Positions 20,320-40,924 of a stretch of 43,362 nucleotides of DNA are shown piece by piece. Every line of letters begins with the position of its first letter. Position 1 is the first letter of the stretch. The stretch comes from Porticoccaceae bacterium (GTDB lineage: Bacteria; Pseudomonadota; Gammaproteobacteria; Pseudomonadales; Porticoccaceae): assembly GCA_028822155.1 (NCBI GenBank), contig JAPKEJ010000014.1, forward strand, positions 1 through 43,362, written 5' to 3'. Position numbers and translations under genes: made by a program. Below the pieces are notes generated by a model. The model ran no database searches and had not been told where the DNA came from. It saw nothing but the letters and a program-made list of their open reading frames with translations.

Positions 20320-21195
20320 TCAAAAAGATGTGCGCTGATAAATTCGCAGAGAAAAATGTACTGGTGTAGTCAGAAGAGTAAGGGCCGCTACTTGTTCTTG
20401 CTGCTCAGCACTGGTATGCCAGTAATATGGAGTCATGGTCAATAGGTCAAGAATGTCAGGCCCCTTCACGGTGATACTGGTCTTAACGTCTATCTGTTCC
20501 TTAAGATCAAAGGCCGGGTGTTCATCCAACACGTTAAAGTTGCCGCCATGAGGTTGATGTTGTTCATAAATGTGCGCGGTAAGGCCTGTGAGATGTTCCT
20601 CTCCTGGGCCCACCATCATTAGCAAACCATCAGCGCTTAAAACCCGTGCGGTCTCGTCTGGGCATATCGGTGAGAAGACTGATAGCGCTGTATCTATACT
20701 ATTGTCAAATAGGGGTATCTTGTAGGCACTGTCTACAACCAGTTGAGCGCCCAGCTTACGGTTGGCTGCTAGTCGCACACCGGCTTTAGAAATATCTAAG
20801 CCAACTAGCTTTAAGTTGGTGTTGGAACTCTTGGCTGCATTTGCCAATTGTTGCAGGTAATAGCCTTCACCACAGCCAATATCTAGCAATCTTTGCTCAA
20901 AACCAAGAGGACAATTATTGACTGCAGTAATGAGGGCATCAGCTAGAGGCTGATAATAGCCACCATTTAAAAACCGTTGCCGACTTTTAATCATTTGGCT
21001 ACTGTCACCTGGCATTTTACTTCGCTTGTGCTGGGATAGATGCAGGTTGAGGTAGCCCTCGCGGGCAAGATCAAAATTATGGTTGTTGGCACAGCGATAG
21101 ACTCGTGACGCATTGCCTGCGACGGCAATTAGTTCACCATCGCAGTTGGGGCATTTAAGCGCAGTGGCTTTGCCCAGGTCTGTATCTAAAATAAT
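20320..21195 (-). CDS. rlmA: 23S rRNA (guanine-N1)-methyltransferase RlmA, probable non-canonical start
   Basis: RlmA methylates 23S rRNA in the helix 35 loop region (G745 in E. coli) with SAM. The first in-frame ATG (21015) would give 231 residues but would cut off the family's zinc-ribbon. The frame is open up to 21204 and encodes CPNC, then C..NH, then [22 protein letters not shown], matching the RlmA N-terminus. No ATG, GTG or TTG lies in that stretch. An ATT at 21195 has GAGG exactly seven bases upstream and gives 291 residues; CTG at 21177 (285 residues) is the alternative. The SAM site is [14 protein letters not shown]. The gene begins inside the 3' end of ftfL, suggesting coupled translation. 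It converges with the FGE-like gene. The start is uncertain; the identity is firm. Confidence 0.82.
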
Positions 21196-22853
21196 CCGAC
21201 TACCTCACCATTCGCGTCAACATCAATATTGTTCGCAGCGGGTACTCTTGGCAGGCCAGGCATGGTCATAATATCGCCACAGACCACTACAATAAAGCCA
21301 GCACCGGCAGACAATCGAACTTCACGGATTGCTACTACATGATTGTTCGGCGCCCCTTTAAGATTCATGTCTGTCGAGAAGCTATATTGAGTTTTGGCAA
21401 TGCACACCGGGAAATGGCCATAACCAGCCTCTTGGAAGCTGTTAATCTGGTCCCTAATTTTTTGGTCGGCAATAATATCATCGGCACGATAAAGGCGCGT
21501 AGCAACCGTTTTAATCTTGTCCCAAATTGGCATTTCATCGGTATACAGTGGCGCAAAGTTAGCATGGCCGCCATCGACTAAAGCAACCACTTCATGTGCT
21601 AAGGCTTCACTACCCGCGCCACCATCGGCCCAATGAGTACATTCAATAGCTTTCACGCCATTTAATTCAGTTACCTGCTTAATCATAGCGATTTCGGCAT
21701 CGGTATCGGTTGTAAATCGGTTGATCGCAACCACGACTGGCACACCAAATGATTTAACGTTCTCGATGTGTCTTACTAGGTTGCTACAACCCTCATGTAA
21801 GGCCTCTACATTTTCTTCACCCAGGTTGTCTTTACTTACGTGACCGTGCATCTTAAGCGCTCTAACCGTGGCAACGATGACTGCGGCGTCGGGGCTTAAG
21901 TTGGCGCTGCGGCATTTGATATTAAAGAATTTCTCCGCCCCCAAATCTGCTCCAAAGCCGGCTTCTGTTACCACATAATCGGCTAGTTTTAGGCCCGCTT
22001 TGGTGGCTATAACCGAGTTGCAACCATGAGCAATATTGGCAAAAGGACCACCGTGAATAATCGCCGGATTGTTTTCTAAAGTCTGTACCAAATTCGGTGC
22101 AAGCGCGTCTTTCAGCAACACAGCCATGGCGCCAATACCTTTAATCTCACTGGCTAAAATTGGCTTATGATCGCGGGTGTACGCCACAACGATTTTGTTT
22201 AGCCGGGCTTTGAGATCCTCAAGATCGTTAGCTAGACAGAATATGGCCATAATTTCTGAGGCCACGGTAATGTCATAGCCGTCTTGGCGAGGAAAACCAT
22301 TGCCGGGGCCACCAAGTCCACAATTAATACTGCGAAGGGCGCGATCGTTCATGTCAATCACCCGCTTCCACTGAATACGTCGAGCATCTATTTCTAAACT
22401 GTTGCCCCAATGAATATGATTGTCGAGCAGAGCAGAGAGTAGATTGTGGGCCGCACCTATTGCGTGGAAGTCCCCTGTAAAGTGCAGGTTAATATCTTCC
22501 ATAGGTACTACCTGAGCATAACCTCCCCCAGCCGCGCCACCCTTCATTCCAAAACAGGGTCCAAGGCTTGGTTCGCGCAGACAAACAATCGATTTTTTAC
22601 CTATTTTATTTAGACTGTCATTAAGCCCGACAGAGGTCGTAGTTTTACCTTCGCCAGCTGGAGTTGGACTAATAGCAGTCACCAAAATCAGCTTTCCATC
22701 TGGGCGGTCTTTTAGCGAGGTCAAATAGTCAGGGTCGATTTTTGCTTTAGTTTTGCCATAGGGTACAAGCGCCGACTCTGGTATACCGATACCTGCGGCT
22801 ACGTCAGTGATCGCTTTCATCTTGCTGTTGCGGGCGATTTCAATGTCACTCAT
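21186..22853 (-). CDS. ftfL: Formate-tetrahydrofolate ligase
   Basis: The enzyme catalyses ATP-dependent formation of 10-formyl-H4folate from formate, or the reverse with ATP synthesis. The 555-residue length is standard. The nucleotide-binding motif [14 protein letters not shown] is near residue 65, with further hallmarks [32 protein letters not shown] and [13 protein letters not shown]. Homologues without the extra insertions of eukaryotic C1-synthases are typical in bacteria. It is transcribed away from the dimethylglycine dehydrogenase gene, sharing a 229-base intergenic region. That position suggests it serves the C1 units released by the neighbouring demethylation genes. Confidence 0.96.
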
Positions 22854-22984
22854 TGCTGTAGCTCTCTCTTTTAATGGACGTTAATTTTTAGGTGCCTCAT
22901 CTTCCGTAAAGCCTATGTTAAAGGGATTTCTAAGACCGTCAATGGTTGTCTCAAAAGCGACTCTAAGTGTTTGGCGTTTTCAGG

Positions 22985-22990: not shown

Positions 22991-23082
22991 TCAGTCGCAA
23001 CTGTGGGCTATCTGCGTTGTGTTGCCAGCTACACTTCGCAATTATTAAAGCCCTAAATAAAAGACAAAATTGAGAAGTTGCT

Positions 23083-25596
23083 ATGAAGAAAAGTGCACAG
23101 GTGGTAGTGGTTGGTGGGGGTGTTGTGGGCGTTAGCACGCTCTATCATCTGGCCAAGAAAGGCTGGACTGACGTCGTTTTAGTTGAACGTAAAGAGCTAA
23201 CGTCTGGTTCTACATGGCACGCTGCAGGGTTGCTTCCTTTGTTTAACATGAGTTATTCGGTGGGTAAGTTACATCAGTACTCGGTCGATTTTTATCACGA
23301 ATTACAGGAAGAAACCGGTCAAAATGTTGGGTTTAGTGTGGTCTCTAACATACGGTTGGCGGCCACTGAAGACCGAATGGATGAGTATAAATATTACTCG
23401 GGCATTGCCCAAACAGTAGGCGTAGAGGTTAACTTCTTAACGCCGGAAGAAGTTAAAGAGGTCTGGCCGCTGTGCAATACTGATGGAATTATCGGTGCTA
23501 TTCAGCACCCGGATGATGGCTATATTCAACCAGCTGATCTTACTCAGGCACTAGCCAAGGGTGCTCGCGCTCGCGGTGCAGAGATCTATCGTAATACGAC
23601 TGTTTTGGATCTTGAACAACAGACAGATGATAGCTGGATAGTCAAAACCGACAAAGGCGACATTCACTGTGAACATGTCGTTGCTTGTACCGGCAATTTC
23701 GCGCGTAAAACCGGGGAGATGGTGGGGCTTGATATCCCTGTCATCCCAGTAGAGCACCAGTATATTGTGACTGACCCACACCCCGACATCCTAGCCCGAA
23801 AAGCAGCGGGTTTGCCAGAGCAGGCGGTATTGCGTGAATCTGACGCAGGTTACTACCTGAGGGAAGAGGCTGGTGGATTTATCTTGGGGCCTTATGAAGA
23901 GGGCGCGCCCTGTTGTTATATGGACGGTCCTAGCGATCAGTCCGAATATGAATTATTTAACGGTGATCTTGATCGACTAATGCCTCATATTGAAGCATGC
24001 ATGAGCCGGGTTCCTGCCTTCGCAGAGGTAGGTGTCAAAACCATTTATAACGGGGCTATTGCCTACACCCCAGATGGCAACCCTATAGTGGGCCCAGCCT
24101 GGGGGTTAAAGAACTTCTGGCTTAATGAGGGGCACAGTTTTGGTATCACCGCAGCCGGTGGTGCTGGTTGGCAGTTAGCAGAATGGATCGTAGACGGTGA
24201 GCCTACAGTGGATATGATGGGCGTTGATCCGAGGCGTTTTGGACCTTACGCGACTCGCGGTTATCTGCGCACCAAAAACGAAGAGGCCTACGATCATGTC
24301 TTTAAAAATCACTATCCAGATGAAGAGCGTGGTGGCGCGCGTCCTTTAAAAACTACACCTTGCTATGATCGCATGAAAAATCTAGGTGCGGTATTTGGTT
24401 CAGTGTATGGCTGGGAGCGACCCAATTGGTTTGCACCTCCTGGTTATTCATTATCAGAGGATGATCTCGATAAAGCGGATACATTGTGGAATAAAAACCA
24501 TTCTACAGCGCTAGTTGACGGTCGTATTGTCGAGAAGAATTCTTTTCGCCGCTCTAATTACTTTGATTTTGTCGGTCAGGAATGTCGCCATGTGAATGAG
24601 CATGTTGGCGTCTTGGACATGTCTGCCTTTTCTAAGTGCACAGTGACTGGCCATGGGTCTGAAGGCTGGCTGAACAGTATTGTAGCTAACAATGTGCCTA
24701 AAGCGATTGGCCGCATCGGGCTTTGCCATATGCTGTCGAAAAACGGAGGTGTTCGAGCAGAATTTACTATTTATAAGCGAGCAAAAAATAGCTATTACCT
24801 AGTGTTTGCCGGCAGCCAAGAACGCCATGACTGGGACTATCTTACCAAGCTTGCGCCTCGTGATGGTTCGGTTAATCTTCAGAAAATCACTACTCAAATG
24901 GGCGTACTGGTGCTAGCGGGACCAAAATCTCGTGATGTGCTCCAAAAGCTTACTGATACGGATCTATCCAATGATAACTTCAAATGGCTAACCGGAAAGT
25001 CGATTAATGTTGGCTATGCGCAAGCAGAGGCGCTGCGTGTTAACTTCGTAGGCGAACTGGGTTGGGAGCTACACCACCCTATTGAGATGCAAAACTATAT
25101 CTTTGATCAATTAATGAACGCCGGTGCCGAGTTTGAAATCAAGCCCTTTGGCATACGTGCAATGGACTCTATGCGCCTCGAAAAATCATATCGATTAATT
25201 CCTCGTGAGATGTCTATTGAGTACTCAGCCCTTGAGTCTGGTTTGGATCGTTTTGTGAAATTGGATAAGGATTGTGATTTCGTCGGCAAGCAAGGCCTTA
25301 TTGATTGGCAGCAGCGCGGGTTTGAGAACTGCTTTGCAACTCTTGAGGTTCATGGGGTTGTTGATGCTGATGCCCGAGGCTCTGAGGGGTTGTATAAAGA
25401 TGGTCAGTTAGTGGGTCGAGCGACTTCAGGTGGGTTTGGGTTTCGCGTCGAAAAATCTCTAGCGTTAGGATTGGTAAAAATAGCCTACGGAGCTATTGGC
25501 ACTGAATTAGAGATTGAAATTTTAGGTGAACGTTACCGCGCTACGGTGATTGAAGAATCGCCGTTTGATGGCGACAACGTGGCCCTTAGAAGCTAG
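23083..25596 (+). CDS. Dimethylglycine dehydrogenase-like FAD/folate flavoprotein
   Basis: This is an 837-residue two-part protein of the DMGDH/sarcosine dehydrogenase family. The N-terminal DAO-type FAD domain (about 1-400) has the dinucleotide motif VVVGGGVVGVSTLYHL and SGSTWHAAGLL, whose His46 corresponds to the histidine that binds FAD covalently in mitochondrial DMGDH and SARDH. A linker domain and a GcvT-like C-terminal domain (about 440-830) follow, where H4folate accepts the formaldehyde-level carbon as methylene-H4folate. The likely reaction is dimethylglycine to sarcosine. Sarcosine is less likely as substrate because a full soxBDAG lies downstream. It precedes the MttB-family gene by 156 bases. 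The family is sure; the exact substrate is inferred from context. Confidence 0.87.
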   Translation: MKKSAQVVVVGGGVVGVSTLYHLAKKGWTDVVLVERKELTSGSTWHAAGLLPLFNMSYSVGKLHQYSVDFYHELQEETGQNVGFSVVSNIRLAATEDRMDEYKYYSGIAQTVGVEVNFLTPEEVKEVWPLCNTDGIIGAIQHPDDGYIQPADLTQALAKGARARGAEIYRNTTVLDLEQQTDDSWIVKTDKGDIHCEHVVACTGNFARKTGEMVGLDIPVIPVEHQYIVTDPHPDILARKAAGLPEQAVLRESDAGYYLREEAGGFILGPYEEGAPCCYMDGPSDQSEYELFNGDLDRLMPHIEACMSRVPAFAEVGVKTIYNGAIAYTPDGNPIVGPAWGLKNFWLNEGHSFGITAAGGAGWQLAEWIVDGEPTVDMMGVDPRRFGPYATRGYLRTKNEEAYDHVFKNHYPDEERGGARPLKTTPCYDRMKNLGAVFGSVYGWERPNWFAPPGYSLSEDDLDKADTLWNKNHSTALVDGRIVEKNSFRRSNYFDFVGQECRHVNEHVGVLDMSAFSKCTVTGHGSEGWLNSIVANNVPKAIGRIGLCHMLSKNGGVRAEFTIYKRAKNSYYLVFAGSQERHDWDYLTKLAPRDGSVNLQKITTQMGVLVLAGPKSRDVLQKLTDTDLSNDNFKWLTGKSINVGYAQAEALRVNFVGELGWELHHPIEMQNYIFDQLMNAGAEFEIKPFGIRAMDSMRLEKSYRLIPREMSIEYSALESGLDRFVKLDKDCDFVGKQGLIDWQQRGFENCFATLEVHGVVDADARGSEGLYKDGQLVGRATSGGFGFRVEKSLALGLVKIAYGAIGTELEIEILGERYRATVIEESPFDGDNVALRS

Positions 25597-25752
25597 GTAA
25601 AAAAAGGCGTTAAAAGATACTTTTAAGTAGCGTCGCATACGGATATTACCGTGTCGCATCGCCATATGCGGACTGCCCTAAACAGGAACAGACTGCGGAC
25701 GATAGCAGATCGATTAATTGAGAGAACTAAGCTCTCCAACGGAAGCGTTATT
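25597..25752 (+). promoter_or_regulatory. Structured leader between the DMGDH-like and MttB-family genes
   Basis: The 156 bases contain an AT-rich hairpin (TTAAAA 25610-25615 with TTTTAA 25621-25626), a direct repeat GTCGCAT (near 25631 and 25652), and a hairpin GAGAG 25720-25724 with CTCTC 25732-25736 just before the ribosome binding site region of the methyltransferase gene. I did not see a B12 box, so a cobalamin riboswitch is not supported. A second promoter or an mRNA-processing site is possible. Confidence 0.3.
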
Positions 25753-27306
25753 ATGACTGAACGAGCAGGGCGTAGAAGAGCAGGAAGAGAGAGCGGTGGC
25801 CGTGAAGGGCGTCGCGAAGCTCGTGCCAATGCGGTGGTTGAAACTACTCCGTTTATCGAGCGGAAAATTCCGTATCTTGAATACCTTACCGAAGAGAATT
25901 TGCAGCTCATAGAAGATAACGCTGATATCCTTTTAGAAGAGATCGGCATTGATTTTCTGGATGATCCAGAGGCTCTGGAAATGTGGAAAGAAGCGGGAGC
26001 CGATGTTCAGGGCTCTCGGGTACACTTTCCCAAAGGCCTGTGCCGGTCATTGATTCAAGCGACGGCGCCACGCGAATATGTGCAACACGCGCGTAATCCA
26101 GCGCGTAACGTTATTATCGGCGGCAAACGCACTGTCTTAGTGCCCGCTTACGGCTCGCCGTTTGTACATGATATTGATAAAGGTCGTCGGTACGCGACTA
26201 TTAATGACTTTGAAAACTTTGTTAAATTGGCCTATATGGCGCCAGATATCCATCACTCCGGTGGCACTATTTGTGAGCCTGTTGATTTACCAGTGAACAA
26301 ACGTCACTTCGATATGGTGTACACCCATTTCAAACTAAGCGACAAGCCATTGATGGGGTCAGTAACTCATCACGAGCGTGCCCAAGATACAGTGGACATG
26401 GCTAAGTTGGTTTTTGGCGAAGAATTTGTTGATCAAAATTGTGTGCTGACTAGTCTTATCAACGTCAATTCGCCAATGACCTATGACGCTACCATGCTTG
26501 GCTCATTGAAAGTGTATGCGCGCAATAATCAGGCGACAGTGATATCACCGTTTATTCTTGCTGGCGCTATGTCTCCTGTCACCACAGCTGGCACGGTCAC
26601 TCAGATTTTGGCCGAAGCGCTGGCGGGCATTGCCTTTACTCAATTATGTCGACCAGGAGCGCCTGTTGTCTTTGGGACATTTGCTGCGGCTGTATCTATG
26701 GCAACCGGTGCACCTACTTTTGGTACGCCAGAACCCAGTCAGGTTATGTATGCTGCGGCATCATTGGCTCGACGTCTTGGTGTCCCTTTTCGCAGTGGTG
26801 GTGGCCTTTGTGGTTCTAAATTGCCCGATGCTCAGGCGGCCTATGAGGCGGCCAATACTCTGCAGACATCTGCTTTGGCCGGAGTTAACTTTATGTTACA
26901 CACTGCCGGTTGGTTGGAAGGTGGCTTGGCGATGGGTTATGAGAAATTTATTATGGATTCTGATCAGGCCAGTATGATCGCGGTATTACTCGGCGGTATG
27001 GATATGTCTGAGAACGGCCAGGCACTTGATGCCGTGCGAGAGGTTGGACCCGGCAAGCATTACTTGGGTTCTGCCCACACGCTGAAAAACTTTGAAACTG
27101 CTTTCTATCGTTCAACGGTTGCTGATAACAACAGCTATGAGCAATGGACTGCAGATGGTTCTCTGGATACAGCCCAGCGCGCCAATATTATATGGAAGAA
27201 AATGCTTAATGAATATCAGGCGCCAGCGCTGGACTCGGCGATTGATGAAGCACTGCTGGACTTTATGGCGCGACGCAAAGGGTCGTTTGCCGATCGAGAT
27301 TATTAA
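25753..27306 (+). CDS. MttB-family (non-pyrrolysine) quaternary amine:corrinoid methyltransferase
   Basis: The 517-residue protein belongs to the trimethylamine methyltransferase superfamily. There is no in-frame amber codon, so it is a non-pyrrolysine member like MtgB (glycine betaine), MtpB (proline betaine) and MtcB (carnitine). It would transfer one methyl from a quaternary amine to the corrinoid protein encoded 26 bases downstream. Glycine betaine is the likely substrate because dimethylglycine and sarcosine oxidising genes flank it. The frame continues to a GTG at 25651, but ATG 25753 is preferred because a GGAAG site lies upstream and the product length fits the family. The N-terminus (residues 3-24) is Arg-rich, with nine Arg. 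The TIM-barrel part includes SGGTICEP, VTTAGTVTQILAEALAGIA and AGWLEGGLAMGYEK. The substrate call is inference. Confidence 0.88.
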   Translation: MTERAGRRRAGRESGGREGRREARANAVVETTPFIERKIPYLEYLTEENLQLIEDNADILLEEIGIDFLDDPEALEMWKEAGADVQGSRVHFPKGLCRSLIQATAPREYVQHARNPARNVIIGGKRTVLVPAYGSPFVHDIDKGRRYATINDFENFVKLAYMAPDIHHSGGTICEPVDLPVNKRHFDMVYTHFKLSDKPLMGSVTHHERAQDTVDMAKLVFGEEFVDQNCVLTSLINVNSPMTYDATMLGSLKVYARNNQATVISPFILAGAMSPVTTAGTVTQILAEALAGIAFTQLCRPGAPVVFGTFAAAVSMATGAPTFGTPEPSQVMYAAASLARRLGVPFRSGGGLCGSKLPDAQAAYEAANTLQTSALAGVNFMLHTAGWLEGGLAMGYEKFIMDSDQASMIAVLLGGMDMSENGQALDAVREVGPGKHYLGSAHTLKNFETAFYRSTVADNNSYEQWTADGSLDTAQRANIIWKKMLNEYQAPALDSAIDEALLDFMARRKGSFADRDY

Positions 27307-27331: not shown

Positions 27332-28030
27332 ATGTCTGATGAAGATGATATCGTATTGGCAGAGCTATCCGATGAAGATTTAGTTCTCCAGATGCATGAC
27401 GATCTGTACGACGGATTAAAAGAAGAAATTATGGAAGGAACTGACATCCTTCTCGCTCGAGGTTGGGGTCCTGAAAAACTCTTGGGCGAAGCCTTGGTTG
27501 CTGGCATGACTATCGTTGGTATTGATTTCCGTGATGGTATTCTATTTGTGCCCGAAGTTCTGTTATCTGCCAATGCTATGAAAGGCGGTATGTCGATTTT
27601 AAAGCCATTGTTGGCTGAGACAGGCGCCAAGCCCGTAGGCACAGTGGTTATCGGCACTGTTAAGGGCGATATCCACGATATCGGCAAGAACCTAGTGGGA
27701 ATGATGATGGAGGGAGCTGGGTTTGAGGTTTACGATATCGGCATCAACAACTCTGTTGAAGATTACTTTGCCGCGCTGGAGCGCCACACACCAGATATTC
27801 TCGGCATGTCGGCTCTTTTAACGACTACCATGCCTTACATGAAGGTAGTGGTCGATGCTTTAAAACAACAGAATTTACGAGATAAATACATTGTTATGGT
27901 TGGCGGTGCGCCACTTAATGAAGAATTCGGTCTGGCGGTTGGTGCCGATGCCTATTGCCGCGATGCTGCAGATGCATCGACTACGGCCATTCGATTGGTG
28001 GCCGAGAGTCGTGCGTTAGAGTCTGCTTAA
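27332..28030 (+). CDS. Corrinoid (cobalamin-binding) methyl-carrier protein
   Basis: This is a 232-residue MtgC/MttC-type protein. A helical cap domain (about 15-95, with the GPEKLLGEALVAGM and FVPEVLLSANAM motifs) precedes the B12 domain (about 100-225). The base-off motif DIHDIG puts His115 as the lower cobalt ligand; SALLTTTM and VGGAPLN contact the nucleotide tail. It carries the methyl group between the MttB-family enzyme and the pterin methyltransferase, and it is the target of the RACE activase. The first 28 residues carry eleven Asp/Glu and no Lys/Arg, complementary to the basic tails of its three partner enzymes. Its stop overlaps the next gene's start (TAATG). Confidence 0.93.
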   Translation: MSDEDDIVLAELSDEDLVLQMHDDLYDGLKEEIMEGTDILLARGWGPEKLLGEALVAGMTIVGIDFRDGILFVPEVLLSANAMKGGMSILKPLLAETGAKPVGTVVIGTVKGDIHDIGKNLVGMMMEGAGFEVYDIGINNSVEDYFAALERHTPDILGMSALLTTTMPYMKVVVDALKQQNLRDKYIVMVGGAPLNEEFGLAVGADAYCRDAADASTTAIRLVAESRALESA

Positions 28031-28650
28031 TGAAAGGGGCGAGTGAACTGGCAAAGGCAAAGCTATTAGTGATTGCCTGCGGTGCACTAGCCCATGAAAT
28101 AGTTTGGTTGCAGAAGCTAAATCACTGGAACCAAATCGATTTGCAATGTTTGGATGCAGAGCTACATAACCGACCAAAATTAATTCCTCAAAAATTACGC
28201 GATAAGATCAAACAGAACCGTGATCAGTACCAGAGCATCTTTGTTGCCTACGCTGACTGTGGTACTGGTGGTGAGATTGATCGGGTGTTACAGGAAGAGA
28301 ATATAGAGCGCCTGCCAGGCGCCCACTGTTATTCGGTTTATGCCACTGAAGAACGTTTTTCTCAATTGGCAGAACAGGAGTTGGGGACTTTTTATCTAAC
28401 AGACTTTTTGGTTGAGCATTTTGACCGCATTATGATTAAAGGCTTAAAGCTCGACAGGCATCCCGAGTTACGTGACCAGTACTTTGCTAATTATACCCGT
28501 GTGGTTTATCTGTCGCAGCGACAAGATAGTGACCTAGTGGCTAAGGCAAAAATAGCGTCAGAATTTTTAGGTTTAGGGTTTCGCCATTTGCATACGGGGT
28601 ATGGCGATCTGAATAACAGCCTGCAGCAGCAGATTTTAAAATTTAAATGA
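28030..28650 (+). CDS. DUF1638 family protein
   Basis: This is a 206-residue cytoplasmic protein of unknown function (DUF1638, PF07796). It is recognised by VIACGALAHEIVWL at the N-terminus and ADCGTGGEIDRVLQEENIERLPGAHCY in the middle. The frame is open upstream, but ATG 28030 overlaps the corrinoid-protein stop codon, giving tight coupling. The family is found next to corrinoid methyltransferase genes in methanogens and in other bacteria, so a role in cobalamin-protein loading, repair or methyl transfer is plausible but unproven. Conserved Cys and His residues (ACGA, DCGTGG, GAHCY) could bind a metal or cobalt. Confidence 0.82.
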   Translation: MKGASELAKAKLLVIACGALAHEIVWLQKLNHWNQIDLQCLDAELHNRPKLIPQKLRDKIKQNRDQYQSIFVAYADCGTGGEIDRVLQEENIERLPGAHCYSVYATEERFSQLAEQELGTFYLTDFLVEHFDRIMIKGLKLDRHPELRDQYFANYTRVVYLSQRQDSDLVAKAKIASEFLGLGFRHLHTGYGDLNNSLQQQILKFK

Positions 28651-28676: not shown

Positions 28677-28985
28677 ATGCAAAAAATTGAAGTGTTTTGG
28701 CGTGATATACCAGCTCAGATATTGGTTAAAAGCGGTCGTGTGCGCGGTAAAGCCATGCTTAGTCATCGTTTCCAGGCGGCGATTGACCGCGCGGCTATGA
28801 AAGCGGGTAAAGGTGGTAGTGCAGAGTATTTAGACGACTGGCGCCGAGTAACCAGTTCACTGGAAGCCCAGGGTACACCACAAGAGTTGGCCCAACAGTT
28901 TGCCGATGCTATCGAAACTGAATTTTCTAACGCTGATATTGCAGCCTTAGTAGCTAACAAGGGCCTTAAGGTAGAGTCTGCATGA
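28677..28985 (+). CDS. Small PF13769-type ('virulence factor') protein
   Basis: This is a 102-residue protein beginning with a vFWRDIPAQILVKSGR segment and continuing with a helical, Ala-rich part. The same family occurs beside methylenetetrahydrofolate reductase genes in Rhodobacteraceae and is labelled 'virulence factor' in databases without functional proof; that label is misleading here. It has no signal peptide, membrane segment or cysteines. An AAAGGGG site lies upstream, and its stop overlaps the MetV-like gene start (ATGA). From its place, it probably assists the methyl-H4folate oxidation step or the MetV-MetF complex; this is inference. Confidence 0.75.
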   Translation: MQKIEVFWRDIPAQILVKSGRVRGKAMLSHRFQAAIDRAAMKAGKGGSAEYLDDWRRVTSSLEAQGTPQELAQQFADAIETEFSNADIAALVANKGLKVESA

Positions 28986-30426: not shown

Positions 30427-30441
30427 TTTTAGGAGAATAAT

Positions 30442-31335: not shown

Positions 31336-31386
31336 ATGTCCTGTAGTGTTTAAATGGAACGTAGTAAAAGTAGGAAGGTAGGTCTA

Positions 31387-33396
31387 ATGGCAGATAAGCA
31401 GGTTAAAGTTGTTTTTACGCCTTCCGGTCGGCGTGGTAGCTTTCCGGTAAACACGCCTTTGCTGCATGCGGCGAGGGTTTTGGGAGTGGATATCGACTCT
31501 GTTTGCGGGGGTCGAGGTCTTTGTGGTCGTTGCCAAATCACCTGTGCCGAAGGCACCTTTCCAAAGCACCAAATTAACTCTGATAGTACTCATCTCTCAG
31601 CGCTCTGTGCTACAGAGATTAAATATGGCGAGCGAAAACCCCCTTTAGCCAATGGCCGCCGTCTAAGTTGCCACACACTGTTGTTGGATGATGTGGTAAT
31701 AGATGTGCCACCTGAAAGTCAGGTGCATCGACAAATTGTGCGTAAAGATGCTGAGTACCGTGATATTAGTCTAGACCCCTCAACTAGACTTTATTATGTC
31801 CAAGTAGAAGAGCCAGACATGCATGTGCCGAAAGGGGATCTGCAGCGGCTTATAGAGACGTTAGAGCAAGAATGGCAGTTGTCCGGTCTCCGCTGTGATA
31901 ATCGCTTACTGAAGAGCTTACAGCCGCTGCTGGCGGCGGGTAAGAGAGCAATCACCGTTGCCGTGCACAAAAATCATCAGATTATTGCTCTCTGGGCTGG
32001 ATTCTACGATAAGGCGTACGGTGTTGCGGTGGATGTGGGTTCGACTACCATTGCTGCGCATCTGTGCGACTTAGCAAGTGGCCAAGTACTGGCCAGTGCT
32101 AGCACCATGAACCCGCAAATACGCTTTGGCGAAGACCTAATGAGCCGTGTGTCCTATGTGATGATGCACCCTGAAGGCGCCAATGAGATGACCGTTGTCA
32201 TTCGCCAGGCGCTTAATCAACTCTTTGTCGAGGTGGCCGAAGAGTTAGGCGTCGGTATAGAGGATATTTTGGAGATTGCTTTAGTCGCTAACCCGATCAT
32301 GCACCATATTTTACTCGGTATTAGCCCTGTAGAGCTTGGTGGCGCGCCGTTTGCCTTGACCACAGATGCTGCTGTGGAAATGCCAGCGACTGAGTTAGAT
32401 TTAGCAATTAATGAGGGTGGTCGCATCTATATATTACCTTGCATTGCCGGCCATGTTGGCGCTGACACTGCCGGTATGATTTTGTCTGAAGAGCCTCAGT
32501 TACAAGACAGGATGACATTGTTGGTCGATGTGGGCACCAATGCAGAGATAGTTTTAGGTAATAGCCAACGCCTGTTGGCGTGCTCTAGCCCCACCGGCCC
32601 GGCGTTTGAGGGAGCGCAGATTAGTTGCGGACAGAGGGCCGCGACTGGCGCCATAGAGCGAGTTCGAATTAATCCAGAAACTCTGGAGCCGCGATTTAAA
32701 GTGATTGGGTCAGAGCTTTGGTCTGATGAGGATGGTTTTATAGAGGCCGTTGCTAGCCATGGTGTTACAGGTATCTGCGGCTCTGGAATTATTGAAGTGG
32801 TCGCTGAAATGTACCTGTCGGGCATAGTGACTGTGGACGGAGTCGTTGATGGCGACTTGATTGATCGAAGCTCTAGAATTATCAAGAATGACCGAACCTG
32901 GTCTTATGTTTTACATACCCCAGATGCAGATGAGATGCAGATTGTAGTGACACAAAATGATATTCGCCAAATTCAGCTGGCTAAGGCTGCGCTCTATGCT
33001 GGGGTGAAATTGCTAATGGACCATATAGGTACTGACCACATTGAGCGCATTCGGTTGGCTGGCGCCTTTGGGAGCCATATTAGCGTGCAGCACGCTATGG
33101 TCTTAGGCTTGATTCCTGACTGTGTTCTTGAGCAGGTTTCCTCTGCAGGCAATGCGGCTGGTACAGGCGCTCGTATCGCGCTGTTAAATGCTGAGTCTCG
33201 AGATGTTATTGAGACACTCGTTAAAAACATAGAGAAGATTGAGACGGCTATGGAGCCAAAATTTCAGGGTTATTTTGTTGATGCTATGGCTTTTCCTAAC
33301 AAAAAAGATCCTTTCCCAAATCTCTTTTCAGTGGTTGATAAACCCCCGCAAAAAGCCGGCCAAGATTCTTCTGTCGGTAGAAAACGCAGACGATGA
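31387..33396 (+). CDS. Corrinoid-protein reductive activase (RACE/RamA-type, 2Fe-2S plus ASKHA domain)
   Basis: The 669-residue protein restores the inactive cob(II)alamin form of corrinoid proteins to cob(I)alamin using ATP and low-potential electrons. The N-terminal plant-type [2Fe-2S] ferredoxin domain has Cys40, Cys46 and Cys49, with the fourth ligand in GRRLSC. After a middle domain, the ASKHA ATPase part has VAVDVGSTTIAAHL (about 212), LLVDVGTNAEIVLG (about 378), SPTGPAFEGAQISCG and GICGSGIIE. It lacks the C-terminal two-[4Fe-4S] domain of methanogen RamA and so resembles bacterial RACo-type activators. ATG 31387 is preferred over ATG 31354 because of a nearby AGGAAGG site. The C-terminus ends in a basic GRKRRR tail. 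Confidence 0.92.
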   Translation: MADKQVKVVFTPSGRRGSFPVNTPLLHAARVLGVDIDSVCGGRGLCGRCQITCAEGTFPKHQINSDSTHLSALCATEIKYGERKPPLANGRRLSCHTLLLDDVVIDVPPESQVHRQIVRKDAEYRDISLDPSTRLYYVQVEEPDMHVPKGDLQRLIETLEQEWQLSGLRCDNRLLKSLQPLLAAGKRAITVAVHKNHQIIALWAGFYDKAYGVAVDVGSTTIAAHLCDLASGQVLASASTMNPQIRFGEDLMSRVSYVMMHPEGANEMTVVIRQALNQLFVEVAEELGVGIEDILEIALVANPIMHHILLGISPVELGGAPFALTTDAAVEMPATELDLAINEGGRIYILPCIAGHVGADTAGMILSEEPQLQDRMTLLVDVGTNAEIVLGNSQRLLACSSPTGPAFEGAQISCGQRAATGAIERVRINPETLEPRFKVIGSELWSDEDGFIEAVASHGVTGICGSGIIEVVAEMYLSGIVTVDGVVDGDLIDRSSRIIKNDRTWSYVLHTPDADEMQIVVTQNDIRQIQLAKAALYAGVKLLMDHIGTDHIERIRLAGAFGSHISVQHAMVLGLIPDCVLEQVSSAGNAAGTGARIALLNAESRDVIETLVKNIEKIETAMEPKFQGYFVDAMAFPNKKDPFPNLFSVVDKPPQKAGQDSSVGRKRRR

Positions 33397-33515: not shown

Positions 33516-34496
33516 ATGTCTGACGATATTGAAGCTAGTGAAGTTGAAGCAGTAACTCTGCATGTTGGGTTTGTCATGCTTCCCGAATATACTCTGAGTA
33601 CCTTTTCAAATGCGGTGGGCATATTGCGCATGGCTAATAGGCTGTCGGGTAAAGAATTATACCGCTGGTCGCTGCATAGTGTTGGCGGTCAGCCCGCAGT
33701 GTCAAGTGCTGGACTGGAGCTTACCTTAGACGGTGGGCTCGATGATGCAAGTGAAGCCAATGTAATACTGGTCTGTGGAGGTTACTCAGTGAAGAGCCAC
33801 TGTGATAAGCCTCTTTTGGACGGTCTGCGAAAGATGGCAAAGCGTAAGATTCCTATGGGAGGTATTTGCACTGGAAGCTATGCGCTAGCGGCGGCCGGTC
33901 TCTTAGACGGATATCGCTGTACCATTCATTGGGAAAATTTAGCCAGTCTACGAGAAGAATTCCCTAAGCTTGAAATATCCTCTAGTTTGTTTGTAATTGA
34001 TCGGGATCGATACACCTGTTCGGGAGGCATAAGTTCAATTGATCTAATGCTTAATTTGGTGGCTAGCATTCATGGACATCAGTTAGTGCAACAGATATCT
34101 GAACAATTCACCTGTGATCGAGTACGCACAGAAAAAGATGCGCAACGGGCTCCTTTAAAATATCTCATTGGAGCCAGTCAGCCACGCCTTGTTGAGGCTG
34201 TCGTGCTCATGGAGAACAACATTGAAGAGCCGCTAACGCTAGATGAGATATCAAATTTTGTTGGCATTTCTCGTCGTCAGTTGGAGCGGTTGTTTAATCG
34301 CTACTTGCACTGTGCACCCTCACGCTATTATCTCGAGTTGCGGCTTTATCGAGCACGATTGCTTCTTTTACAGACATCTATCCCAGTGATTGACGTAGCG
34401 ATTAGCTGTGGCTTTTCTACTGCGCCCCATTTCAGTAAGTGCTACAGCGATCTTTACAGTAAACCACCGAGTAGTGAGCGAAGAGCTCTGATCTAG
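33516..34496 (+). CDS. GbdR-like GlxA-family transcriptional activator
   Basis: The 326-residue regulator has a DJ-1/PfpI-like N-terminal domain (about 15-190, with GGICTGSYALAAAGLLDG and a TIHWE segment) and an AraC-type double helix-turn-helix at the C-terminus (about 220-320, with ISRRQLERLFNRYLHCAPSRYYLELRL and FSTAPHFSKCY). The sequence, including SGKELYRW and the HWEN/FPKLE region, looks much like Pseudomonas GbdR, the activator of glycine betaine catabolism that responds to betaine and dimethylglycine. From its position between the corrinoid operon and soxBDAG, it is the best candidate regulator for both. Its TAG overlaps the TAG of the convergent regulator gene within one CTAG. Confidence 0.88.
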   Translation: MSDDIEASEVEAVTLHVGFVMLPEYTLSTFSNAVGILRMANRLSGKELYRWSLHSVGGQPAVSSAGLELTLDGGLDDASEANVILVCGGYSVKSHCDKPLLDGLRKMAKRKIPMGGICTGSYALAAAGLLDGYRCTIHWENLASLREEFPKLEISSSLFVIDRDRYTCSGGISSIDLMLNLVASIHGHQLVQQISEQFTCDRVRTEKDAQRAPLKYLIGASQPRLVEAVVLMENNIEEPLTLDEISNFVGISRRQLERLFNRYLHCAPSRYYLELRLYRARLLLLQTSIPVIDVAISCGFSTAPHFSKCYSDLYSKPPSSERRALI

Positions 34497-35485
34497 GTTC
34501 GGTAATCCGTTGGCTTCTTATCAAAAGCGGCGCGGAACGCCCGAGAAAAATGTGCGGTGTCGGCAAAACCGCATTCCTGAGCGATATCGGTAATCAATCG
34601 TTTAGTGTTTTGCAATAACCAAAGCCCATAGCGCAAACGAATCTTACGGTAGAACTTCTGCAGACTGTCGTTGGTTTCATTGGCAAATAGTCTTTCCAGT
34701 TGACGCTTGGAAATATCCACTCGAGTGGCTATTTGGTCAGTTGATAATGGTCTACTCAAGTTCTGCTCCATCAACAGCAGAGCTCGCCCTACCAATCGAT
34801 TATTAACATGATAGTCACTGCCAGGCTGTGGTTGAGGAGCATTAGCTGGACGCGGGCTGTCCATCACTAGTATGCGTAGGCTCTTGCGCGCCCAGTTTTG
34901 ACCTAGATGACGTTCAATGATGTAGGCCGCCAAGTCTGCCGCCACTGCGCCACCGGCGCAGGTAATGCGGTCGCCGTCGTCAACAAAAAGCTGGTCAGCT
35001 ATGGGTGTGACATTGGTGTAGCGATCGGTTAGATCCTTGTAGTGAAACCAGCTAACGCAACAGCGTCGTTGCTCCATCAATCCAGCTCGAATCATCACAA
35101 AAGAGCCGGTGCAAAGCCCGATAATTGGAACGTGAGCTGCGTCTACTTGTTGTAGATAATCAACCACATGCTGGCTACCTTGCAGAGTGTTGTTCAGAAG
35201 CCCACCGACCACTACAACGTAGTCAAAATCTGCTGGATTGCGATAGATCTCCCAAGGCTGAACAGTGACGCCAGAGCTGGACGCGATGGCCTCCAGCGTG
35301 GGTCCCATTACCGTCCACTGACAGTTAATTTGCCGGCTCTGATCACCTTCATCGGCAGCCAAACGAAGAGCGTCCACAAAGGCCGAAAAGGGCAGAAGGG
35401 TAAAGCTTGGCATGAGCACAAAGCCAACAGACAAGTGAGTTGAATTATTGGCTATTTTGGATTGCTCAGTGGTGTTTTTTTTCAT
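34493..35485 (-). CDS. GlxA-family AraC-type transcriptional regulator
   Basis: This is a 330-residue second member of the same family, with a DJ-1/PfpI-like domain (IIGLCTGSFVMIRAGLMEQRRCC, and ITCAGGAVAADLAAYII) followed by an AraC DNA-binding domain (ISKRQLERLFANETNDSLQKFYRKIRLRYG broken over two helices, then CGFADTAHFSRAF). It differs clearly from the GbdR-like neighbour, so it is not a recent duplicate. It is divergent from soxB across 213 bases, which suggests control of the sarcosine oxidase operon, comparable to SouR or CdhR-type regulators. An AAGGTG site lies eight bases before the ATG. The effector is unknown. Confidence 0.85.
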   Translation of the reverse strand: MKKNTTEQSKIANNSTHLSVGFVLMPSFTLLPFSAFVDALRLAADEGDQSRQINCQWTVMGPTLEAIASSSGVTVQPWEIYRNPADFDYVVVVGGLLNNTLQGSQHVVDYLQQVDAAHVPIIGLCTGSFVMIRAGLMEQRRCCVSWFHYKDLTDRYTNVTPIADQLFVDDGDRITCAGGAVAADLAAYIIERHLGQNWARKSLRILVMDSPRPANAPQPQPGSDYHVNNRLVGRALLLMEQNLSRPLSTDQIATRVDISKRQLERLFANETNDSLQKFYRKIRLRYGLWLLQNTKRLITDIAQECGFADTAHFSRAFRAAFDKKPTDYRT

Positions 35486-35698
35486 TCAAAATCACCTTAT
35501 ATTGGTCGTTTTCATACGGGTATTTGTTACTATTTTACATAACGATAACGACATTTTAGCGTTAAAACCGGCATTATTGTGTTTAATTACTTTGGCTGTC
35601 GTTTTTCCGCTCTCAATTGACGTTTTTGTTCTAGCACCTAGAGGGTAAAAACTGGTCCAATGATGGTTGTCTAAGCTCTTATAAACGCAGTGGTCATC

Positions 35699-36949
35699 AT
35701 GAAACGATATTCTGGTTTTAGCTTGTTAAAAAATGCTCTTAGCTACCATGAAAACTGGCAGAAAGTGTGGCGCAATCCAACGCCGAAAAAAGACTACGAT
35801 GTAATTATTGTGGGCGGTGGTGGGCATGGTCTTGCAACAGCTTATTATTTGGCGAAGATCCACGGAATTACCAATGTTGCGGTGGTCGAAAAAGGTTATT
35901 TAGGAGGCGGTAACACAGCCAGAAATACCACTATTATTCGCTCTAACTACCTGTGGGACGAAGCAGCTCAACTTTATGAGCTATCGCTGAAGTTGTGGGA
36001 AGGGTTGAGTCAAGAGCTTAACTATAATGTGATGTTTAGCCAGCGCGGCGTGCTTAATTTAGGGCATAACTTACAGGATATGCGCGATATTGAGCGCAGA
36101 GTTAACGCCAATCGTCTGAATGGTATTGACGGCGAAGTAGTTACTCCACAGCGGATCAAAGAGATCGCACCACTGATTAATATTTCGCCTGACAGTCGCT
36201 ACCCTATTTTAGGCGCTTCCTGGCAACCACGGGGTGGCACAGCGCGACATGATGCCGTTGCTTGGGGTTATGCGAGGGGTGCAGATGCTTTAGGGGTCGA
36301 CATGATCCAACAAACGGAAGTAACCGGTATTCGCCGTAAAGACGGTGCCGTAGTCGGTGTTGAGACCTCTAATGGTTTTATTGGTGCTCGCAAAGTGGCC
36401 TGTGTGACTGCGGGTAATTCTGGCGTAGTCGCGGCCATGGCTGGATTGAGATTGCCGGTAGAGTCTCGGCCGCTACAAGCTTTAGTATCAGAGCCGATAA
36501 AACCCTGCTTAGATACGGTGGTTATGTCTAACGCGGTACACGGATACATTAGCCAATCAGATAAAGGCGACCTCGTTATTGGTGCCGGTGTAGACAGTTA
36601 TAACGGCTATGGTCAACGCGGTTCTTTTCATGTCGTAGAACACACCGTGCAGGCAATTTGTGAACTATTCCCGGCCTTTAGTCGGGTTAGTATGAATCGT
36701 CAATGGGGCGGTATTGTTGATACCTGTCCGGACGCTTGCCCAATTATCAGTAAAACGTCAGTTGACGGCCTCTATTTCAACTGTGGCTGGGGAACCGGTG
36801 GATTTAAAGCGACACCGGGTTCTGGGTATGTGTTCGCCGATACAGTAGCGAATGATCGTCCTCATCCTTTGGCAGAAGCCTTTAACTTAGATCGGTTCAA
36901 TACTGGAGCTTTGATCGATGAACATGGTGCTGCTGGTGTTGCCCACTAG
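35699..36949 (+). CDS. soxB: Sarcosine oxidase subunit beta
   Basis: SoxB is the catalytic flavin subunit of heterotetrameric sarcosine oxidase, which oxidises sarcosine to glycine. The protein has 416 residues. The start motif [10 protein letters not shown] is typical of SoxB, and ATG 35699 is chosen over GTG 35690. The FAD-binding motif [18 protein letters not shown] spans residues 34-51. His184 in [12 protein letters not shown] corresponds to the histidine that binds FMN covalently. It is first in a soxB-D-A-G operon. No strong ribosome binding site is seen. Confidence 0.96.
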
Positions 36950-36982
36950 CGCTTGTCGAAATAATAAGTCGAGAGAATAGAG

Positions 36983-40200: not shown

Positions 40201-40287
40201 TGCCCAGCAGCCGATGGAAGTTCGATCGCTGCTGAAATTGTCAGTTCTGTTTTTTATGACCCAACAGGGGCGCGCCAAAATGACTAA
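37270..40287 (+). CDS. soxA: Sarcosine oxidase subunit alpha
   Basis: SoxA (1005 residues) binds NAD and H4folate. An N-terminal ferredoxin-like fold without cluster cysteines (about 15-110, GRSFKYARPRGIFGHGPEEP) is followed by a pyridine nucleotide domain (CDVLVVGAGPAGLVAAREAA, about residue 170). The C-terminal GcvT-like folate domain (about 620-1000) takes the formaldehyde-level carbon from the SoxB/SoxA channel to make 5,10-methylene-H4folate. It lies between soxD and soxG with overlaps on both sides. Confidence 0.96.
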   Translation: MRQLNRLLAAGRTDQNKVLNFTFNGKDYQGVAGDTLASALLANGIDVVGRSFKYARPRGIFGHGPEEPNAIMQIGSGASTIPNLKATQVELYEGLEAASVNGWPSVNFDIMGLIGAFGRLMPPGFYYKTFMYPKKLWMTYEHFIRKAAGLGSSPVESDPDSYEKLNQHCDVLVVGAGPAGLVAAREAARTGARVIIADEQSEFGGSLLASTQLIDGLSATQWVADITKELGAFSNVQRLPRSTVFGYYDHNFLAILERRTDHLGISAPSGPRQCMHRVRAAQVVLATGAFERPLVFAHNDIPGVMLASSVSTYVNRYGVAPGNRLVLAVTNDNAYQTAIDWYHTGRTVVAVVDSRTAPNGVLVEQVRALGIQILEGHGLIEAVGSKRVRKALVAPINEAGSEVTGSVQSLVCDLIASSGGWSAAIHLSSHTGAKPVWDASVVSFRPGESKQQERSAGACKGTFGVLDGLIEGANAGAEAAKLAGFGEGQVQFPTPLIDQIIEQPQQALFLVPHSKTTSRAPSQFVDFQLDVSAAGIELAVLEGFESVEHVKRYTALGFGTDQGKLGNINGMAILAKALGQGIAETGTTIFRPSYTPTTFGAIAGRDINHLFDPERYTAMHRWHVDSGAEFENVGQWKRPWYFPQVNETMQQAVDREGLAVRNSVGILDATTLGKIDIQGPDAAEFITRMYTNSYLKLAPGKCRYGVMLKEDGMIFDDGVCACLSENHYLMFTTTGGAAGVLSWLELWQQTEWPELQVYFTSVTDHWATATVTGPNARKVIAKVCQDIDLASESFGFMDWREGTVSGVAARVFRISFTGELSYEVNVPAHYGRYIWEQLIEAGAEFNITPYGTETMHVLRAEKGFIIVGQDTDGSMTPADMNMDWVVGKNKAFSFIGKRSLERSDSVRENRKQLVGLKTLDPSAVLPEGAQVVNDPNQPIPMSMQGHVTSSYYSASLGHSIALAVIKGGLSRMGDTIHCPAADGSSIAAEIVSSVFYDPTGARQND

Positions 40288-40924
40288 ACTAGATGCTCAA
40301 GATGTTATTTTAGAATCGCCATTGCATTATTTTAGTAAAATCTCTAGCCACCCAGTCAGCTCAAATCAGTTATTTAATGGTGATTTGGAGTTTGGTGTGG
40401 TCGCCAAAGAAATTAGGCTTGGCTGCCAGCTTAATCTTCGTGGTGATGCTAGTGACGAACATTTTGTGACTGGTGCCGAGTCGGTATTGGGTATTGCACT
40501 GCCAACTGTACCCGGTACTTATCAATATAATAGCGATACCGCCGTCTATTGGCTTGGGCCCAATGAATGGCTAATTACTAGTGCTACAGATGCCCTAGAG
40601 TTGGAAGCATTGCTGCGCTCAAAGTTTGAGGGTCATATAGCGATTATTGATGTGAGCGGCGGCCAAACCCTGGTCAATCTGCGCGGTCATGGGGTTCTTA
40701 CTTTACTTAAGAAAGCTAGCGTCTATGATTTTTATAGTTGGTCCGATGCCGTCCCTGGTGCTGGTCGCTGTGTACAAACCACCTTTGCTAAAGCAACAGC
40801 GATTGTTGCCAATCGAACCGACGGTAGCTTCGATATAATTATCCGTCGCAGCTTTAGTGATTATATTGCCCAATGGTTGTTAGATGCAGGTCAAGAGTAT
40901 GGCTGTCGCATTGAATCTTGTTAA
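40280..40924 (+). CDS. soxG: Sarcosine oxidase subunit gamma
   Basis: SoxG is the structural fourth subunit, 214 residues, with a GcvT-like fold (GLGPNEWLI-type segment around residue 95, and SVYDFYSWSDAVPGAGRCVQTTFAKATAIV broken by the fold core). The frame is open further upstream in soxA, but ATG 40280, eight bases inside the soxA end, is the natural start. It ends the sox operon; no glyA or other C1 gene follows it here, unlike many sox operons. Confidence 0.93.
   Translation: MTKLDAQDVILESPLHYFSKISSHPVSSNQLFNGDLEFGVVAKEIRLGCQLNLRGDASDEHFVTGAESVLGIALPTVPGTYQYNSDTAVYWLGPNEWLITSATDALELEALLRSKFEGHIAIIDVSGGQTLVNLRGHGVLTLLKKASVYDFYSWSDAVPGAGRCVQTTFAKATAIVANRTDGSFDIIIRRSFSDYIAQWLLDAGQEYGCRIESC

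What the first reader, a model, noticed from the sequence alone, without database searches (positions are those of the whole stretch)
21186..40924. Complete corrinoid-dependent quaternary-amine demethylation pathway in a respiring gammaproteobacterium
Seen: an MttB-family enzyme, corrinoid protein, pterin methyltransferase, RACE activase, MetF and MetV-like protein in one tight run, flanked by a DMGDH-like enzyme, soxBDAG and ftfL, about 6 kb after a full complex I operon. Established: MtgB/MtgA-type systems are characterised in anaerobes such as Desulfitobacterium and acetogens, while aerobic betaine loss normally starts with BHMT or GbcAB. Inference: here the anaerobe-type first step feeds the aerobic oxidative steps, so all three methyls of glycine betaine end up on H4folate and glycine is released. 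How cob(I)alamin chemistry is kept working under oxygen is the open question.
Basis: partly seen in the sequence, partly recalled or inferred. Interest (0 to 1): 0.85.

Follow-up and report, generated by a model that had tools for sequence, protein, structure and literature searches.

The report
Vitamin-B12 betaine demethylation operon, marine bacterium
This marine SAR92-type bacterium carries a gene set that probably strips methyl groups from the algal osmolyte glycine betaine with vitamin-B12 chemistry; such a route was published for aerobic marine bacteria in 2025, but the set also holds a small protein mislabelled "virulence factor" that looks like an overlooked part of the machinery.

Summary
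Window 21186-40924 holds ftfL, a DMGDH-like enzyme, a non-pyrrolysine MttB, a corrinoid protein, DUF1638, a PF13769 protein, MetV, MetF, an MtgD-type H4folate methyltransferase, a RACo-type activase, two GbdR-like regulators and soxBDAG. Nearest relatives are Porticoccaceae/SAR92.

MtgBCD demethylation of glycine betaine in aerobic marine bacteria, Gammaproteobacteria included, was published in 2025 (PMC12478193); helper genes for cobalamin reactivation in an aerobe in 2018 (PMC5764234). The genome also keeps MetH and a BHMT-like gene; none of eight Rieske oxygenases passes the GbcA cut-off.

Two things not found in my paper searches. (1) PF13769 ("Virulence_fact") tracks MtgD: of 398 genomes of the phylum 41 have PF13769 and 42 have MtgD, 41 shared; in 39 of 41 it lies upstream of mtgD on the same strand within 3.5 kb. 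It is probably an unrecognised MtgD/MetF partner. (2) The methyl-H4folate oxidation module is swapped in place, apparently repeatedly, between MetV-MetF and a divergent MetF2-like gene, with other operon members kept.

The parts
21186..22853 (-). ftfL, formate--tetrahydrofolate ligase (C1 oxidation/assimilation end)
   Evidence: NF010030 921.3 bits, cut-off 652
23083..25596 (+). DMGDH-like: DAO + FAO_M + GCV_T/GCV_T_C, probable dimethylglycine dehydrogenase
   Evidence: Pfam; kept before mttB in many Porticoccaceae loci
25651..27306 (+). MttB/MtgB-type non-pyrrolysine methyltransferase; true start probably ATG 25753
   Evidence: PF06253 753.8 bits; Leu at the Pyl site; Y/N/R/H of the proposed betaine site kept
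27332..28030 (+). MtgC corrinoid-binding protein with DxHxxG (residue 113)
   Evidence: PF02310, PF02607; motif; below glycine-betaine MtgC model cut-offs
28030..28650 (+). DUF1638 protein, cobalamin-reactivation accessory; invariant C17, C40, H46, C77, C100 in 35 sequences
   Evidence: PF07796 100 bits; alignment A2; genetics of the P. inhibens DUF1638 protein in PMC5764234
28677..28985 (+). PF13769 'Virulence_fact' protein, proposed MtgD/MetF partner
   Evidence: PF13769 64.8 bits; co-occurrence with MtgD; model pLDDT 91
28982..29443 (+). MetV-like (DUF5981), eight Cys
   Evidence: PF12225 86.7 bits; Cys positions
29440..30426 (+). MetF (methylene-H4folate reductase family), inferred to run as methyl-H4folate oxidase
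   Evidence: PF02219 127 bits
30442..31335 (+). MtgD, methyl-H4folate:corrinoid methyltransferase
   Evidence: NF005719 364.6 bits, cut-off 259
31354..33396 (+). RACo/RamA-like reductive activase (2Fe-2S, linker, middle, ASKHA)
   Evidence: PF14574, PF17651, PF17650, PF00111
33516..34496 (+). GbdR-like AraC regulator
   Evidence: NF052371 425.6 bits, cut-off 480
34493..35485 (-). second GbdR-related AraC regulator
   Evidence: NF052371 186.7 bits, cut-off 480
35690..36949 (+). soxB, sarcosine oxidase beta
   Evidence: TIGR01373 721 bits
36983..37273 (+). soxD, sarcosine oxidase delta
   Evidence: TIGR01374 123.9 bits
37270..40287 (+). soxA, sarcosine oxidase alpha
   Evidence: TIGR01372 1441 bits
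40187..40924 (+). soxG, sarcosine oxidase gamma (true start probably further in; match covers residues 84-237)
   Evidence: PF04268 86 bits; TIGR01375 below cut-off

Best explanation
An operon of the published aerobic MtgBCD kind. MtgB (MttB family) moves one methyl of glycine betaine to cob(I)alamin on MtgC, giving dimethylglycine; MtgD moves it to H4folate; MetF with MetV oxidises methyl-H4folate to methylene-H4folate; the RACo-type activase with DUF1638 re-reduces cob(II)alamin that has slipped. The DMGDH-like enzyme and SoxBDAG oxidise dimethylglycine to sarcosine to glycine, also loading H4folate, and FtfL closes the C1 end. GbdR-like regulators sense betaine/dimethylglycine. MetH elsewhere makes methionine, so here the Mtg set is probably catabolic. 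Shown here: gene content, conservation, motifs, co-occurrence. Shown by others in R. pomeroyi: need for MtgC and MtgD. Inferred: substrate, direction of MetF, fate of the second and third methyl, regulation.
For: Domain calls (5, 6, 7, 11). R. pomeroyi mtgC and mtgD mutants do not grow on betaine even with methionine, and co-location of mtgBCD with later betaine demethylation genes in marine Alpha-, Gamma- and Deltaproteobacteria is reported. RamA-like and DUF1638 needed for split methionine synthase in aerobic P. inhibens. Residues matching DhMtgB Y94, N199, R309, H345 kept in 87 of 87 rows; the C14 paralogue keeps 1 of 4. GbdR-like regulator. Two full-length BCCT transporters plus one partial match in the genome. 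In Azoarcus KH32C the corrinoid-DUF1638-PF13769-MetV-MetF-MtgD-ASKHA run sits among glycine-betaine ABC transporter genes (no mttB in the stretch shown). MetH in genome.
Against: No activity data for this organism. One proposed aromatic contact (F353 of DhMtgB) is Gly in 87 of 87 rows, so the pocket differs from the anaerobe enzyme. MttB paralogues act on several quaternary amines, so another substrate is possible. MtgC is below the curated MtgC cut-offs and the regulators below the GbdR cut-off. A BHMT-like gene could carry some betaine. No CobS gene found in the 89%-complete genome, so corrinoid may have to be imported.
Confidence: 0.83

Rival explanations
1. Betaine is mainly demethylated by the BHMT-like enzyme on contig C35, and the Mtg operon serves methionine synthesis or is secondary.
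For: C35 protein passes NF005718 (439.9 vs 338 bits); recombinant P. inhibens Bmt makes methionine from betaine without cobalamin (PMC12366255, passages).
Against: The C35 gene sits beside recQ, away from DMG/sarcosine genes. MetH is present, so a split synthase is not needed for methionine. The Mtg operon is joined to DMGDH and soxBDAG. In R. pomeroyi, which has the homologue MtgE, mtgC loss abolishes growth on betaine even with methionine. Against PDB sequences the C35 protein scores higher to a bacterial MetH N-terminal part (141.5 bits) than to human BHMT (47.4 bits).
Confidence: 0.08
2. The operon demethylates a different quaternary amine (for example proline betaine, carnitine or gamma-butyrobetaine) and not mainly glycine betaine.
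For: MttB-family members of Eubacterium differ in substrate (stated in PMC12478193); the pocket differs from DhMtgB at the F353 site.
Against: DMGDH and sarcosine oxidase genes in the same run imply N-methylglycines as products; GbdR-like regulators; four proposed betaine residues kept.
Confidence: 0.12
3. A GbcAB-type Rieske monooxygenase does the first step in this genome.
For: Eight Ring_hydroxyl_A proteins are present; the best scores 278 bits to the GbcA model.
Against: 0 of 8 reach the GbcA cut-off of 670; the best lies in a run with glutamine-synthetase-like, DAO, GATase and class-III aminotransferase genes, which looks like another pathway.
Confidence: 0.03
4. PF13769 is a passenger gene with an unrelated function, kept near mtgD by operon inertia.
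For: No biochemical data. B. subtilis, a control genome, has a PF13769 match but no MtgD match at E <= 1e-75, so the domain is not tied to MtgD outside this phylum. The genomes are not independent. Two of 64 gammaproteobacterial mtgD loci (L077, L100) show no PF13769.
Against: 41 of 41 PF13769 genomes of 398 have MtgD, across nine families; in five f38 genomes it stays next to a MetF2-like gene and MtgD while MttB, MtgC, DUF1638 and RACo were not found in the 10-kb region fetched, and in G047 it precedes MtgD without MetF; 19 invariant columns in 39 gammaproteobacterial sequences.
Confidence: 0.3

Closest known systems
MtgBCD(E) glycine betaine demethylase / split methionine synthase of Ruegeria pomeroyi DSS-3 (PMC12478193)
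   Same: PF06253 MtgB, MtgC, MtgD, RamA-like activase, DUF1638, a dedicated MetF; aerobic marine host; DMG and sarcosine steps downstream
   Different: Here one operon; MetV with MetF (R. pomeroyi MetF2 itself was not compared); full MetH kept; the words 'virulence' and 'SAR92' do not occur in that paper's main text
Sinorhizobium meliloti Ak57 pSymB cluster
   Same: MttB, corrinoid protein, DUF1638, PF13769, MetV, MetF, MtgD, ASKHA activase in the same order apart from inserted genes and the divergently placed mttB
   Different: No DMGDH/sox genes in the 18 kb shown; several inserted small genes
MtgB/MtgA/MtgC of Desulfitobacterium hafniense (PDB 2QNE, 9YCE for MtgB)
   Same: Non-pyrrolysine MttB with the same four proposed betaine residues
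   Different: Anaerobe; corrinoid protein of another subfamily; pocket residue F353 replaced by Gly here; no oxidative DMG steps (last point recalled)
Split methionine synthase of Phaeobacter inhibens (PMC5764234)
   Same: Pterin and corrinoid modules, RamA-like and DUF1638 helpers
   Different: Runs toward methionine; here MetH does that
MetVF of acetogens (recalled)
   Same: MetF with a separate MetV-like cysteine-rich partner
   Different: Presumed reverse direction (oxidation); no Rnf/Hdr partner genes were seen among the operon's genes

Membership tests
Aerobic MtgBCD betaine demethylase | PF06253 MtgB-type protein without pyrrolysine | tested here: met
   753.8 bits; below Pyl-MttB model TIGR02369 (263.8 vs 525); Leu at Pyl site
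Aerobic MtgBCD betaine demethylase | Corrinoid-binding MtgC with DxHxxG beside MtgB | tested here: met
Aerobic MtgBCD betaine demethylase | MtgD pterin methyltransferase | tested here: met
   364.6 vs 259 bits
Aerobic MtgBCD betaine demethylase | RamA-like activase and DUF1638 | tested here: met
   (Pfam domains)
Aerobic MtgBCD betaine demethylase | Betaine-dependent methyl transfer and growth | not testable with these tools
   Needs enzyme assay or mutants
Aerobic MtgBCD betaine demethylase | Dual use in methionine synthesis (MtgE present, usually no MetH) | tested here: inconclusive
   MetH present (2144 vs 1497 bits) and an MtgE/BHMT-like gene also present
Glycine-betaine MtgC corrinoid protein (curated models) | NF047996 / NF047995 curated cut-off | tested here: not met
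   195 vs 370; 172 vs 310 bits
AcsV / methylamine RamA curated activases | NF040756 / TIGR04270 cut-off | tested here: not met
   373.6 vs 800; 100.8 vs 500 bits; Pfam RACo domains all met
GbcA glycine betaine monooxygenase | NF058607 cut-off 670, any of 8 Rieske alphas in the genome | tested here: not met
   0 of 8; best 278
Betaine--homocysteine methyltransferase | NF005718 cut-off 338, C35 protein | tested here: met
   439.9 bits; activity not testable
Heterotetrameric sarcosine oxidase | Four subunits A, B, D, G together | tested here: met
   soxG under NCBIfam but over Pfam cut-off
GbdR | NF052371 cut-off 480 | tested here: not met
   425.6 and 186.7 bits

The most novel reading that the evidence does not exclude
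The small PF13769 protein, annotated 'virulence factor', is an obligatory and so far unrecognised subunit or folate/methyl-transfer partner of MtgD (with MetF or a MetF2-like enzyme) in proteobacterial corrinoid demethylation of osmolytes, and the methyl-H4folate oxidase around it is a swappable module. Its invariant residues include basic and aromatic ones (R9, R21, K25, R31, R38, R57, W8, W55) and no Cys or His, which suits binding of an anionic ligand such as polyglutamyl-folate or a protein surface, not a metal. In the 150-genome sample the only MtgD genome without it (G103) also lacks MttB, a single case that ties it to demethylation and not to methionine synthesis.
Probability: 0.6. Interest if true: 0.6.

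Novelty: new member of a known kind. Interest (0 to 1): 0.45.

Why it matters
[quoted passage not shown] The operon places them among probable vitamin-B12-dependent betaine degraders. It is present in records of HTCC2207, H921 and MOLA455, which are not marked as MAGs, so the pathway should be testable in culture. If the PF13769 link holds, a gene mis-named 'virulence factor' in marine and soil bacteria becomes a part of, and a genome marker for, corrinoid osmolyte demethylation.

Tried and rejected
GbcAB as the first step: rejected, 0 of 8 Rieske proteins pass the cut-off. Pyrrolysine MttB: rejected, Leu at the Pyl site and no in-frame stop. Fold-based function for PF13769: Foldseek against PDB gave no match with E <= 0.001, best 0.21 with TM about 0.2, meaningless. 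Fold-based function for DUF1638: none with E <= 0.001, best 0.0026 to a carbamoyltransferase with TM 0.25, generic alpha/beta similarity, not used. Sequence profiles of both against PDB: nothing below E 0.02. The idea that MetV-MetF feeds electrons to RACo was considered and left as speculation.

Papers: no paper in the library holds 'PF13769' or 'pfam13769' (0 papers); 'virulence factor' with methylenetetrahydrofolate reductase, corrinoid and trimethylamine methyltransferase: 0 papers; other searches were (40 of 88 listed). The library holds open-licence papers only and no preprints; supplements were not read, so a gene shown in a figure or data set of PMC12478193 could escape me. What I saw: PMC12478193 parts 1-4 of 6 and a passage search; PMC5764234, PMC6855144, PMC9842639, PMC12366255 and PMC11306105 as passages only; all others as listings. 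No search was made for the methyl-H4folate oxidase swap by name.

Limits of the counts: the 80 relatives are the best 80 of 339 hits, so they are biased toward close kin; 16 have no mtgD in the DNA held (several are contig ends) and were left out of the counts over 64. L062 was labelled MetF2 in the tree although its MetF2-like hit lies elsewhere in the locus, and L065 has only a partial MetF and no MetV. The tree is of MtgD alone, many forks are weak, and recombination could inflate the number of swaps.
Full report
WHAT IS THERE. The window lies on contig C48 of a 2.44-Mb, 108-contig, 89%-complete genome. Its nearest named relatives are Porticoccaceae/SAR92: MttB is 98% identical in Porticoccaceae bacterium SI054_bin69, 90% in HTCC2207, 89% in SAR92 strain H921 and 88% in MOLA455. 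From 21186 to 40924 the genes are ftfL (minus strand), a DMGDH-like gene, mttB, mtgC, a DUF1638 gene, a PF13769 gene, metV, metF, mtgD, a RACo-type activase, a GbdR-like regulator, a second regulator on the minus strand, and soxB-D-A-G. mtgC/DUF1638 overlap by one base and PF13769/metV and metV/metF by four. The complex I operon is real, but nothing ties it to this pathway beyond nearness.

CHEMISTRY. The MttB protein is of the non-pyrrolysine kind: Leu at the pyrrolysine site and closest in PDB to 4YYC (749 bits), then MtgB of D. hafniense (2QNE, 9YCE, about 429 bits), far from Pyl-MttB (121 bits). A docking study of DhMtgB and its Methanolobus relative proposed Y94, N199, R309 and H345 as betaine contacts (PMC6855144, passages read). 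I mapped these by the alignment (published number = chain index minus one, my inference). All four are kept in the window protein and in 87 of 87 rows (window, 80 loci, 6 operon-linked proteins of other genomes), while the C14 paralogue keeps only N199. The aromatic F353 is Gly in all 87, with a Trp four residues before it, so the pocket is not the same as in the anaerobe. MtgC carries DxHxxG. RACo has its Pfam domains; MetV has eight Cys.

KNOWN ALREADY. PMC12478193 (parts 1-4 of 6 read) shows that R. pomeroyi needs MtgC and MtgD for growth on glycine betaine and for methionine synthesis, names MetF2 as the likely methyl-H4folate oxidase, reports mtgBCD in marine Alpha-, Gamma- and Deltaproteobacteria often beside DMG/sarcosine genes, and finds high expression across the ocean. 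PMC5764234 (passages) shows that a RamA-like protein and a DUF1638 protein are needed for cobalamin-dependent methionine synthesis in aerobic P. inhibens, with no specific proposal for DUF1638.

REST OF THE GENOME. Full-length MetH is on C69 (2144 vs 1497 bits) and a BHMT/MtgE-like gene beside recQ on C35 (439.9 vs 338 bits). Holding both MetH and MtgBCD is the minority state in that paper (28 of 239 metH genomes); here it implies that the Mtg set is not needed for methionine. The paper argues that the S. meliloti-type BHMT lacks betaine-binding residues; against this, recombinant P. inhibens Bmt used betaine and DMSP in vitro (PMC12366255, passages), so the C35 enzyme stays a rival. Eight Rieske alpha subunits are present, none near the GbcA cut-off. 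Two full BCCT transporters and one partial match. No CobS. A second MttB on C14 is followed by two DMGDH-like genes.

THE SMALL PROTEIN. In 398 genomes drawn evenly from the phylum, PF13769 occurs in 41 and MtgD (NF005719, E <= 1e-75, all over cut-off) in 42; the overlap is 41, the odd one being G103. In 39 of 41 it lies upstream of mtgD on the same strand, with 141-3477 bases between the matched stretches; the exceptions are G280 (26 kb, opposite strand) and G315 (another contig). The naive hypergeometric value of 3e-55 ignores kinship; the 41 genomes fall in nine families. Among the 14 control genomes, B. subtilis has PF13769 without such an MtgD, so the link is claimed for this phylum only. 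In an earlier 150-genome sample, whose 13 PF13769 genomes recur in the 398, all 13 have full-length MttB, MtgD and DUF1638 matches; the only other MttB match is a 73-position fragment in G088, and G103 has MtgD and DUF1638 but neither MttB nor PF13769; DUF1638 is wider, 27 of 150. In five f38 genomes the 10-kb stretches fetched show only PF13769, a MetF2-like gene and MtgD of the operon, and in G047 PF13769 directly precedes MtgD. Among the gammaproteobacterial loci, PF13769 is found in 62 of 64 with mtgD (not in L077, L100), against DUF1638 55, RACo 53, MtgC 60 and MetF 41 (contig ends lower some counts). S. meliloti pSymB and Azoarcus KH32C show PF13769-MetV-MetF-MtgD in a row, where the product is annotated 'virulence factor'. 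The AlphaFold2 model is confident (best model mean pLDDT 91, the five models 69-91) but matches no solved fold. I infer a partner of MtgD/MetF; the biochemical role is unknown.

MODULE SWAP. Of the 64 loci with mtgD, 40 carry the window type of MetF (39 of them with MetV), 15 a divergent MTHFR relative of about 310-340 aa (17.6 and 18.1 bits in the two tested, under the Pfam cut-off of 24), 5 a MetF relative of about 280 aa (42.7 and 34.8 bits in the two tested) and 4 none. The gene lies between PF13769 and mtgD in 38, 14 and 5 of these; L062 has it elsewhere and L077 and L100 lack PF13769. 0 of the 20 loci with a MetF2-like gene have MetV, 20 of 20 have PF13769. The divergent kind matches the gene in the same slot of the five f38 genomes at 36-39% identity; that it equals R. 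pomeroyi MetF2 is inferred. On an MtgD tree of 72 rows the labels need 10 changes in all; the MetF2 label alone needs 6, at least 4 forced by well-supported branches, one of them owed to the mislabelled L062, and the sister of the window's own MetVF clade is a MetF2 clade (100/97). The oxidase module has therefore probably been replaced more than once with other operon genes kept.

VERDICT. A good member of a recently described kind, in an oligotroph group with isolates, with two observations that I did not find in print and that could be tested quickly.

Noticed in passing
28677-28985: PF13769 'virulence factor' gene co-occurs with MtgD in 41 of 41 PF13769 genomes of 398 sampled from the phylum.
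   Followed up: yes
L031, L036, L042, L046, L048, L049, L051, L052, L055, L056, L058-L061 between PF13769 and mtgD: MetV-MetF replaced by a divergent MTHFR relative (MetF2-like) in the same slot.
   Followed up: yes
L018 5147-11572 (own genome C14): Second, divergent MttB followed by two DMGDH-like genes: perhaps a system for another N-methylated amine; it lacks three of the four proposed betaine residues.
   Followed up: partly
28030-28650: DUF1638 has invariant C17, C40, H46, C77, C100 in 35 aligned sequences, which suggests a metal or cluster site; fold search gave nothing useful.
   Followed up: partly
own genome: No CobS gene found in the 89%-complete genome, so a corrinoid importer is likely needed for MetH and Mtg.
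   Followed up: partly
L024 3833-5092 (own genome C53): GbcA-like Rieske oxygenase (278 of 670 bits) in a run with a glutamine-synthetase-like, DAO, GATase and class-III aminotransferase gene; may open another amine pathway.
   Followed up: no
17227-20293: Alkaline phosphatase family, GST and FGE-sulfatase-domain genes between complex I and ftfL.
   Followed up: no
L164 255-1946 (Azoarcus KH32C): An annotated ETF beta gene, a FAD-binding protein gene and betaine ABC transporter genes lie next to the mtg-type run, suggesting ETF as an electron acceptor there.
   Followed up: no
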